Of a stretch of DNA of 64,000 bases, positions 35,237 through 42,375 are shown in pieces. The translations under genes were made by a program, and so were the position numbers. Where the stretch lies: contig JANQNG010000059.1 in the NCBI GenBank assembly GCA_028279685.1, positions 1 to 64,000 of the forward strand. The letters are read 5' to 3'. Source of the stretch: Candidatus Nanoarchaeia archaeon. GTDB taxonomy: Archaea > Nanobdellota > Nanobdellia > Woesearchaeales > SKIA01. The notes under the pieces are model-generated. The model was given only the letters and a program-made list of their open reading frames with translations. It was not told the DNA's origin and did not search any database. The stretch's first letter is position 1, and each line of letters begins with the position of its first letter.

Positions 35237-35266
35237 GAATAAGATAAAAAAATAAGAAAAAAGGGC

Positions 35267-35698
35267 TTATCGCCTCTTCTTCTTTCTCTTGACTTTCTTT
35301 TTGGCCTTCTTCTTTTTCTTTACTTTCTTCTTAGGTTTCTTTTTAGCCTTTTTCTTCTTTTTTGCTTTTTTCTTTTTCTTGGCTTTCTTTTTCTTCTTCT
35401 TTACTTTCTTCTTTTTCTTCACTTTCTTCTTAGCTTTCTTTTTGGCCTTTTTCTTTTTCTTTCTTCGTCCGCCGCCACCGACTTTCATCTTGGCACGGGC
35501 GATGTGACCGTGTTTGTCAATAAAGTACAGATAACCTGCTTCTTTCTTCACGCCGACTTTTGCGACAACTTGCTGTTTTGCTTTGCCTCTGCTTTTACCG
35601 CGGGCCATCTTTGACCTAGCCACATTACCTCTTCTGTCGACAAAATAGAGATAACCAGGCTCTTTTTTCACTCCAACTTTTGCAACGACTTGCGCCAT
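35267..35698 (-). CDS. Lysine-rich basic protein with a duplicated ~27-aa motif; candidate nucleoid protein
   Basis: VVAKVGVKKEPGYLYFVDRRGNVARSKM / VVAKVGVKKEAGYLYFIDKHGHIARAKM plus a long KKKAKKK tail; SD GGAGGT before ATG 35698. Confidence 0.75.
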   Translation of the reverse strand: MAQVVAKVGVKKEPGYLYFVDRRGNVARSKMARGKSRGKAKQQVVAKVGVKKEAGYLYFIDKHGHIARAKMKVGGGGRRKKKKKAKKKAKKKVKKKKKVKKKKKKAKKKKKAKKKKKAKKKPKKKVKKKKKAKKKVKRKKKRR

Positions 35699-39065: not shown

Positions 39066-39176
39066 ATTTTTAGAGGTGCATATTCTCTTTTAAACCTTTC
39101 TTTAGTCTATAAGCATATCATAACTTTTAAAAACCAAGTTCTCGTTCTCTTTTTTATGTTCATACCTTCAGTATAT

Positions 39177-39321
39177 GCCCTCGTATCAAAGTCTTCGACT
39201 TTGGACGGATGCTCATTGGCATTCGCCTCCGTATCAAAGTCATGCGACTTTGGACGGATGCTCATTGGCATTCGCCTCCGCAATCAAAATCAGAGATTTT
39301 GGGCGGAAGCTCACTACGCTC
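39177..39321 (+). repeat. Three tandem minihelix repeats (48/49/48-bp period) abutting tRNA-Thr(TGT)
   Basis: Units at 39177-39212, 39225-39261, 39274-39310, separated by spacers such as TCATTGGCATTC. Confidence 0.85.
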
Positions 39322-39410
39322 GCCTCCGTAGCATAGCGGCTATTGCGGCAGACTTGTAAACAATTGTTCATGAGATCTGCAGGTCGGGGGTTCAAGTCCC
39401 CCCGGAGGCT
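39322..39410 (+). tRNA. tRNA-Thr(TGT) with ~16-nt intron at about 37/38 (39359-39374)
   Basis: GCCTCCGTAGCATAGCGGCTATTGCGGCAGACTTGTA|...|ATCTGCAGGTCGGGGGTTCAAGTCCCCCCGGAGGCT; U73 as in archaeal tRNA-Thr. Confidence 0.88.
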
Positions 39411-39696
39411 TCTTAAATTATTTGGGCTACTCAACTTTATGTTGAGTAGACCTGAGGTTGATAAGGAGATGTAGCGTAGCGAAGTTTCCTTATGTGGTAG
39501 TCCCCCTGGAGGCTTTTTTGTTCTTTATTTTTTTTGAATGTTTGTTAAAAAACGAGTAGTTTACTTTTATGTATACCATTCATTATTAAGTGAACAAAAA
39601 TAGTATACAAATTGCTAAACTATTATATCCTCCTCGAGAAAATGAAACGAAAGGTATATAAATACAGCTTCAGTTTGCTCTTTTGGGTGATAATGT

Positions 39697-42125: not shown

Positions 42126-42163
42126 TTTTAAAAAGGCTTTTAGGATTCTTTTCACTAACGGAT

Positions 42164-42257
42164 GCCTCCGCAATCAAAATCAGAGATTTTGGGCGGAGGC
42201 TCGTTCACTTGCCTCCGTATCAAAGTCTTCGACTTTGGACGGATGCTCATTTCATTC
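42164..42257 (+). repeat. Two tandem minihelix repeats (47-bp period) abutting tRNA-Thr(GGT)
   Basis: Units at 42164-42200 and 42211-42246; near-identical to units U3 and U1/U2 at 39177-39310. Confidence 0.85.
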
Positions 42258-42375
42258 GCCTCCGTAGCTCAGTGGTTAGACCAAAGCTTGCTAAAGAGCG
42301 CTTAGAATTGACTTTGTCTTTTCTCGCTTGACCTTGGTAAGGTAGAGGTCGCGAGTTCAACTCTCGCCGGGGGCT
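42258..42375 (+). tRNA. tRNA-Thr(GGT) with two introns (about 42279-42295, 17 nt; 42303-42330, 28 nt)
   Basis: Exons join to GCCTCCGTAGCTCAGTGGTTAGAGCGCTACCTTGGTAAGGTAGAGGTCGCGAGTTCAACTCTCGCCGGGGGCT (73 nt), U73. Confidence 0.85.

What the first reader, a model, noticed from the sequence alone, without database searches (positions are those of the whole stretch)
39177..39321. Tandem acceptor-stem-mimicking minihelices upstream of tRNA-Thr(TGT)
Three 36-37 nt units with 11-12 nt spacers end exactly at the tRNA 5' end. Units 2 and 3 start with GCCTCCG, the tRNA-Thr acceptor 5' strand (unit 1 has GCCCTCG). Each then forms a 7-bp hairpin (CAAAGTC-TTC-GACTTTG or CAAAATC-AGA-GATTTTG, a compensatory G-C to A-T change) and ends CGGATGC or CGGAAGC, which can partly pair back to GCCTCCG. 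They look like tRNA minihelices lacking D, anticodon and T arms. Possible roles: decoy or processing substrates for RNase P/RNase Z, small RNAs, or tRNA-targeted repeats. I know of no described family like this.
Basis: partly seen in the sequence, partly recalled or inferred. Interest (0 to 1): 0.8.

Follow-up and report, generated by a model that had tools for sequence, protein, structure and literature searches.

The report
Hairpin repeats piled at tRNA ends
In front of two threonine-tRNA genes of an uncultured archaeon sit tandem copies of a small hairpin, each starting with a copy of the tRNA's own first letters; similar hairpins pile up at either end of tRNA genes in distant relatives, so they look like tiny, undescribed insertions that home to tRNA ends rather than working mini-tRNAs.

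Summary
Three 48-49-bp units (39177-39321) abut tRNA-Thr(UGU). Each unit is one hairpin: a copy of tRNA nt 1-8, a 1-2-nt bulge, an 8-bp stem-loop, an acceptor-like 3' arm, then a spacer. Two pairs change compensatorily.

Units recur before tRNA-Thr in three other genomes (353 of the order searched; two other families). Looser versions occur in a further genome's tRNA-Thr and before a different tRNA in another. A syntenic tRNA-Thr locus lacks the unit. TATA boxes lie upstream of the arrays, so the units should be transcribed as tRNA leader.

They belong to a wider pattern. Many tRNAs in these genomes carry hairpin-rich, non-coding inserts of about 40-230 bp, ending in a copy of that tRNA's 3' end (9/24 tRNAs here versus 0.8% by chance) or beginning with its 5' end (4/24 versus 0.2%). 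One 3' insert has an empty site in a congener.

Best reading: footprints of small palindromic insertions directed to tRNA ends, tandemly accumulated; the mobilising enzyme is unknown. A processing or decoy RNA role is not excluded but has no direct support.

The parts
39126..39133 (+). TATA-like box TTTAAAAA, promoter candidate for array + tRNA-Thr(UGU)
   Evidence: Best TATA-like 8-mer, 47 bp before the first unit; none of comparable score near the tRNA itself
39177..39224 (+). Unit A1 (alpha type): GCCCTCGT-A-TCAAAGTC-TTC-GACTTTGG-ACGGATGC + 12-nt spacer
39225..39273 (+). Unit A2 (alpha type): GCCTCCGT-A-TCAAAGTC-ATGC-GACTTTGG-ACGGATGC + 12-nt spacer
39274..39321 (+). Unit A3 (beta type): GCCTCCGC-AA-TCAAAATC-AGA-GATTTTGG-GCGGAAGC + 11-nt spacer, abutting the tRNA
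39322..39410 (+). tRNA-Thr(UGU) gene with 16-nt intron (about 39359-39374) at 37/38
   Evidence: Rfam tRNA 56.6 bits; anticodon and intron read from sequence
39411..39514 (+). 3'-side hairpin insert ending in a copy of the tRNA 3' end (AGTCCCCCTGGAGGCT, about 39499-39514); contains hairpin 39424-39452 and GGTTGATAAGG...CCTTAT 39456-39493
42127..42134 (+). TATA-like box TTTAAAAA, promoter candidate for the second array + tRNA
   Evidence: 33 bp before the first unit, none near the tRNA
42164..42210 (+). Unit B1 (beta type): GCCTCCGC-AA-TCAAAATC-AGA-GATTTTGG-GCGGAGGC + 10-nt spacer; the only unit with a fully paired acceptor-like arm
42211..42257 (+). Unit B2 (alpha type): GCCTCCGT-A-TCAAAGTC-TTC-GACTTTGG-ACGGATGC + 11-nt spacer, abutting the tRNA
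42258..42375 (+). second tRNA-Thr (predicted anticodon GGT, intron-containing)
   Evidence: Rfam tRNA 36.7 bits; anticodon read from sequence, intron boundaries not resolved

Best explanation
The units are footprints of very small, non-coding palindromic elements that insert at the ends of tRNA genes, each event leaving a copy of the tRNA end outside the restored, intact tRNA. At the 5' side the promoter and a copy of about the first 8-14 tRNA nucleotides stay upstream and the intact tRNA lies downstream; at the 3' side the copy starts about T-loop nt 58 and runs to the 3' end. Repeated insertion or later tandem amplification at the same tRNA gives arrays such as the two before the tRNA-Thr genes. 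SHOWN: arrays, copies, palindromy with compensatory changes, excess over chance at both tRNA ends, recurrence in other families, matched loci with and without an insert. INFERRED: that these are insertions rather than losses, that a recombinase or transposase acting in trans moves them, and that the units are transcribed as leader RNA. UNKNOWN: the enzyme and the exact joints.
For: Second array at another tRNA-Thr with the same two unit types in another order, A = alpha,alpha,beta; B = beta,alpha. The inner hairpin TCAAARTC..GAYTTTGG occurs 8 times in the genome, 7 beside tRNAs, including the 3' side of a tRNA-Glu and of a third tRNA. Own-end copies: 3' side 9/24 tRNAs versus 0.8% null; 5' side 5/24 versus 0.2% (4/24 without a neighbouring whole tRNA-Leu); 3' copies also in G115 6/17, G008 5/20, G097 4/19. 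A shared insert type GGTTGATAAGG-hairpin-CCTTAT in 11 of 118 genomes (25 sites versus 4 control), most directly 3' of tRNAs and followed by that tRNA's 3' end. Units of the same design before tRNA-Thr in G110, G177 (two in tandem) and G220, control 0. Matched loci: G059 lacks the 3' insert and 3' copy that congener G115 has; syntenic G012 tRNA-Thr lacks the 5' unit of G220. TATA boxes lie 28-47 bp before the first 5' copy and not before the tRNA in all four own 5' cases. Four tyrosine-recombinase genes in the own genome.
Against: No element carries a gene and no recombinase was linked to any of them. Copy lengths vary (9-24 nt at 5', about 10-30 nt at 3'), unlike a fixed target-site duplication. 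No element was seen in two allelic states within one species. Compensatory changes inside the hairpin could also reflect selection on an RNA. G115, with many inserts, shows no PF00589 gene, though that assembly is 76% complete. Same-family G001 has no copies at 26 tRNAs, so spread is patchy.
Confidence: 0.6

Rival explanations
1. Functional leader RNA: the minihelices are kept because, in the pre-tRNA transcript, they act as processing signals, decoys or regulatory elements (for RNase P/Z, threonyl-tRNA synthetase or a splicing factor), or yield small RNAs.
For: Arrays lie between TATA and tRNA, so should be transcribed. 16-bp helix with two compensatory pairs, 93.8% paired, low folding energy. 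Similar units before tRNA-Thr in other families. The acceptor-like arm is paired at both ends but mismatched only at positions 3-5, which could be selected.
Against: Patchy: strict pattern in 4 real genomes of 353; third own tRNA-Thr(CGT) has none; hairpin and copies also occur 3' of other tRNAs. Predicted fold of leader+tRNA lets array copies compete with the tRNA acceptor, which would hinder maturation. No transcript data.
Confidence: 0.2
2. Attachment-site debris: conventional integrases of plasmids or viruses used these tRNAs as attB; displaced tRNA fragments remain after the bodies were deleted, and hairpins arose later.
For: Archaeal integrases use tRNA T-loop/3' ends and, for pTN3-type, the 5' half, restoring the tRNA and leaving a fragment (PMC8371274). 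A tRNA-Thr(GGU) 5' fragment with a putative integrated element is known in Caldiarchaeum (PMC3293823). Tyrosine recombinases present.
Against: Inserts are uniformly tiny (about 40-230 bp), hairpin-rich and share sequence between different tRNAs and families; random deletion of larger elements would not give this.
Confidence: 0.12
3. Local duplication only: slippage or template switching at tRNA genes made tandem copies of leader hairpins; no mobile element.
For: Units are tandem and near-identical; tandem 3' units too.
Against: The same hairpin sits at different tRNAs and on opposite sides, and the GGTTGATAAGG insert type is shared by many families.
Confidence: 0.07

Closest known systems
tRNA-targeted integrative elements of archaea (SSV-, pNOB8-, pTN3-type tyrosine integrases; PMC8371274)
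   Same: Intact tRNA restored, tRNA end fragment displaced outside the insert; T-loop/3' end most used, 5' half used by pTN3-type
   Different: Known elements are kilobases long and encode an integrase; here 40-230 bp, non-coding, hairpin-only, often tandem, on both sides of tRNAs
REP/REPIN and BIME palindromes with RAYT transposases (bacterial)
   Same: Short imperfect palindromes, non-autonomous, sometimes arrayed (own knowledge; titles and abstracts)
   Different: REPs are dispersed extragenic repeats; these are few, tRNA-bound and carry tRNA-end copies; RAYT presence not tested
Caldiarchaeum tRNA-Thr(GGU) disruption (Sugahara 2012, PMC3293823)
   Same: 5' fragment of tRNA-Thr upstream of an intact tRNA-Thr, attributed to an integrating element
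   Different: There a 1.8-kb insert with a recombinase gene; here arrays of about 48-bp hairpins
Archaeal tRNA introns at non-canonical positions
   Same: Hairpin inserts in D-arm or T-loop of tRNA genes also occur in these genomes
   Different: The units lie outside the mature tRNA and contain end copies; no bulge-helix-bulge motif was evident by eye

Membership tests
tRNA-targeted tyrosine-integrase elements | Intact tRNA plus displaced tRNA fragment at the far end of the insert | tested here: met
   3' copies 9/24 versus 0.8% null; 5' copies 5/24 (4 real) versus 0.2%
tRNA-targeted tyrosine-integrase elements | Element encodes its integrase | tested here: not met
   Inserts of about 40-230 bp are too short to encode one; four PF00589 genes exist elsewhere in the genome
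tRNA-targeted tyrosine-integrase elements | Empty site in a relative | tested here: met
   3': G059 versus G115; 5': G012 versus G220, syntenic but more divergent
tRNA-targeted tyrosine-integrase elements | Defined crossover core shared by both ends | tested here: inconclusive
   3' inserts often end GTGGGAATC next to T-loop AATC; 5' joints vary between nt 9 and 24
REP/BIME palindromes | 20-40-bp imperfect palindrome | tested here: met
   37-nt hairpins with one or two internal mismatches
REP/BIME palindromes | High-copy dispersed extragenic repeat | tested here: not met
   Inner hairpin 8 copies per genome, 7 at tRNAs
REP/BIME palindromes | Partner RAYT (HUH tyrosine transposase) | not tested
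   No genome search left for PF01797
RNase P/RNase Z minihelix substrates | Cleavage at the unit in vitro or in vivo | not testable with these tools
   No transcript or enzyme data; geometry only

The most novel reading that the evidence does not exclude
A previously undescribed class of minimal mobile palindromes in this archaeal order that home to both ends of tRNA genes by carrying a tRNA-end copy as one hairpin arm, and that may also seed tRNA introns and reshuffle tRNA genes.
Probability: 0.35. Interest if true: 0.82.

Novelty: new variant of a known kind. Interest (0 to 1): 0.64.

Why it matters
tRNA genes are the classical landing sites of mobile DNA, but known guests are large and carry their own enzyme. 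Hairpin-only inserts of 40-230 bp that pile up at both tRNA ends across many families would be a new minimal form. They may help explain why archaeal tRNA genes are so often interrupted, duplicated in part or rearranged, and they force the cell to mature tRNAs from leaders full of acceptor-like decoys.

Tried and rejected
A pattern scan of GTDB contigs gave four unrelated hits (betaproteobacterium, Modestobacter, Cyclobacterium, Methylococcaceae; not followed up) and viral contigs none. DNA similarity search of 60 relatives found only the tRNA part; units are too short and varied for BLAST, so patterns anchored on the tRNA end were needed. G301 match rejected: no tRNA follows. G049 5' copy set aside: a longer tRNA 5' half with a TATA-like stretch between. 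First structure count used a wrong register, repeated correctly. Chance and assembly error rejected: non-identical units, two loci, other genomes. Literature: nine searches of an open-access library found no description of such units; subscription papers are not held, so this is weak evidence of novelty.

Full report
WHAT IS THERE. The window is part of contig C24 (193 kb) of an archaeal genome (archaeal RNase P RNA; G000, 1.9 Mb, 80 contigs). The collection does not name it; small genome size and a very family-rich order suggest a DPANN lineage (inference). The tRNA is sound: Rfam 56.6 bits, anticodon TGT with a 16-nt intron at 37/38 by reading.

A SECOND ARRAY. The same units occur once more in the genome, at 42164-42257, abutting a second tRNA-Thr at 42258-42375. 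Two unit types exist: alpha (A1, A2, B2) and beta (A3, B1). The order differs between the arrays (alpha-alpha-beta and beta-alpha) and the spacers differ, so one array is not a plain copy of the other. The third tRNA-Thr (CGT), with a different acceptor strand (GCTTCCG), has no array.

THE UNIT. Each unit is one imperfect hairpin: tRNA nt 1-8 as 5' arm, a 1-2-nt bulge, an 8-bp stem with a 3-4-nt loop, and an acceptor-like 3' arm; then a 10-12-nt spacer. Over the five units 93.8% of cells pair; sliding the partner by 1-3 columns gives 26-54%; two pairs change on both sides. With five related sequences this is suggestive, not decisive. The acceptor-like arm is mismatched only at positions 3-5: its ends are kept, its middle is not, unlike a real acceptor stem. 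Five single units fold with z -2.8 to -5.2. The fold of leader plus tRNA shows array copies competing for the tRNA's acceptor strand (prediction only).

RECURRENCE. A pattern anchored on the tRNA end (GCCTCCGYA, 12-42 nt, GCCTCCGTAGC) in 353 genomes of the order matched, besides the window, tRNA-Thr leaders in G110 and G177 (family f41) and G220 (f10), none in the reversed control; G301 was a false match. G177 has two tandem units, one beta-like and one alpha-like, and G110 a beta-like unit, so the T8-A/C8-G swap recurs. Looser versions: tRNA-Thr of G028 and a different tRNA of G046, where two loci share the 5' copy GCCGCGGTCGCATA but have entirely different, perfectly paired inner stems.

A WIDER PATTERN. 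Printing both flanks of all detected tRNAs of the genome showed hairpin-rich non-coding inserts at many of them. Measured on 215 tRNAs of 12 genomes: a copy of the tRNA's own last 14 nt within 350 bp downstream in 9/24 own tRNAs versus 0.8% when ends are matched to other tRNAs' flanks; a copy of the first 10 nt upstream in 5/24 versus 0.2% (one of the five is a neighbouring tRNA-Leu). G115, G008 and G097 show 3' copies at 6/17, 5/20 and 4/19; same-family G001 at 0/26. The window tRNA-Thr(UGU) itself has a 3' insert (39411-39514) ending in a copy of its 3' end. Its core, GGTTGATAAGG-hairpin-CCTTAT, occurs at 25 places in 11 of 118 genomes (4 in the reversed control), most directly 3' of a tRNA and followed by GTGGGAATC plus that tRNA's 3' end, sometimes in tandem. 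Some copies are not beside tRNAs (L140, L143, L148). The inner hairpin of the window units occurs 8 times in the genome, 7 beside tRNAs, including the 3' side of two other tRNAs. 5' and 3' cases are mirror images: 5' copies end in the acceptor/D-arm (nt 9-24), 3' copies begin about nt 58.

INSERTION OR LOSS. In congeners G115 and G059 one tRNA locus differs by an insert of about 110 bp plus 3' copy, with aligned sequence on both sides. For the 5' type, G220 and G012 share neighbours around tRNA-Thr; G220 has a unit, G012 none, though flanking DNA is too diverged to place the joints. At another G115 locus the flank of a G059 tRNA (3' end CCCAGGGCTA) follows a different tRNA and two tandem inserts, consistent with recombination between inserts.

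TRANSCRIPTION. In 5'-insert cases (L012, L029, L014, L017) the best TATA-like box is 47, 33, 34 and 28 bp before the first 5' copy and no good one precedes the tRNA, while most other own tRNAs have it 27-34 bp before the tRNA. Promoter, units and tRNA should form one transcript (inference; no RNA data).

EXPLANATION. I favour footprints of tiny palindromic insertions at tRNA ends. Known archaeal integrases use the T-loop/3' end and, for pTN3-type, the 5' half of tRNAs, restore the tRNA and leave a fragment (PMC8371274); a tRNA-Thr 5' fragment beside an inserted element is described in Caldiarchaeum (PMC3293823). The geometry agrees; the size, lack of genes, tandem stacking and hairpin make-up do not. 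Four tyrosine-recombinase genes exist in the genome, but nothing ties them to the inserts. A transposase of the REP/IS200 type was not tested. A leader-RNA function remains possible.

NOVELTY. Nine literature searches found no matching description, in an open-access library only. I rate it a new variant of a known kind (tRNA-targeted insertions / short palindromic repeats), with a reasonable chance of being a class of its own.

Noticed in passing
G049 L040 (1501-1620), G013 L100 upstream, G000 C24:150735-150935: tRNA genes with inserts in the T-loop (about position 58/59), some with hairpins, in apparently live tRNA genes; the position matches where 3' copies begin.
   Followed up: partly
L009, L010, L017, L022, L023 (own genome) downstream of tRNAs: 3' inserts begin with an inverted copy of the same tRNA's T-arm (e.g. 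GGATTTGAACCC-TTCA-GGTTCATGCTCA), specific to each tRNA; could pair with the tRNA T-arm.
   Followed up: partly
G115 C39 (L196) versus G059 L205 and L209: Two G059 tRNA loci appear joined in G115: one tRNA, two tandem inserts, then the 3' end and flank of another tRNA; suggests recombination between inserts moves tRNA genes.
   Followed up: partly
G000 C18:165700-165800; C24:54821-54890; C24:5558-5597: Tandem short hairpins with different stems in intergenic regions not beside a tRNA.
   Followed up: no
L143 and L148 (G115, G059): GGTTGATAAGG-type inserts not beside a tRNA but upstream of open reading frames.
   Followed up: no
window 35238-35486: Overlapping tandem repeats, CTTCTTTTTCTT-like on the + strand, as expected of a lysine-rich low-complexity tail coded on the - strand.
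   Followed up: no
window 42158-42166: ACGGATGC immediately before unit B1, overlapping its first bases; may be the stump of a further alpha unit.
   Followed up: no
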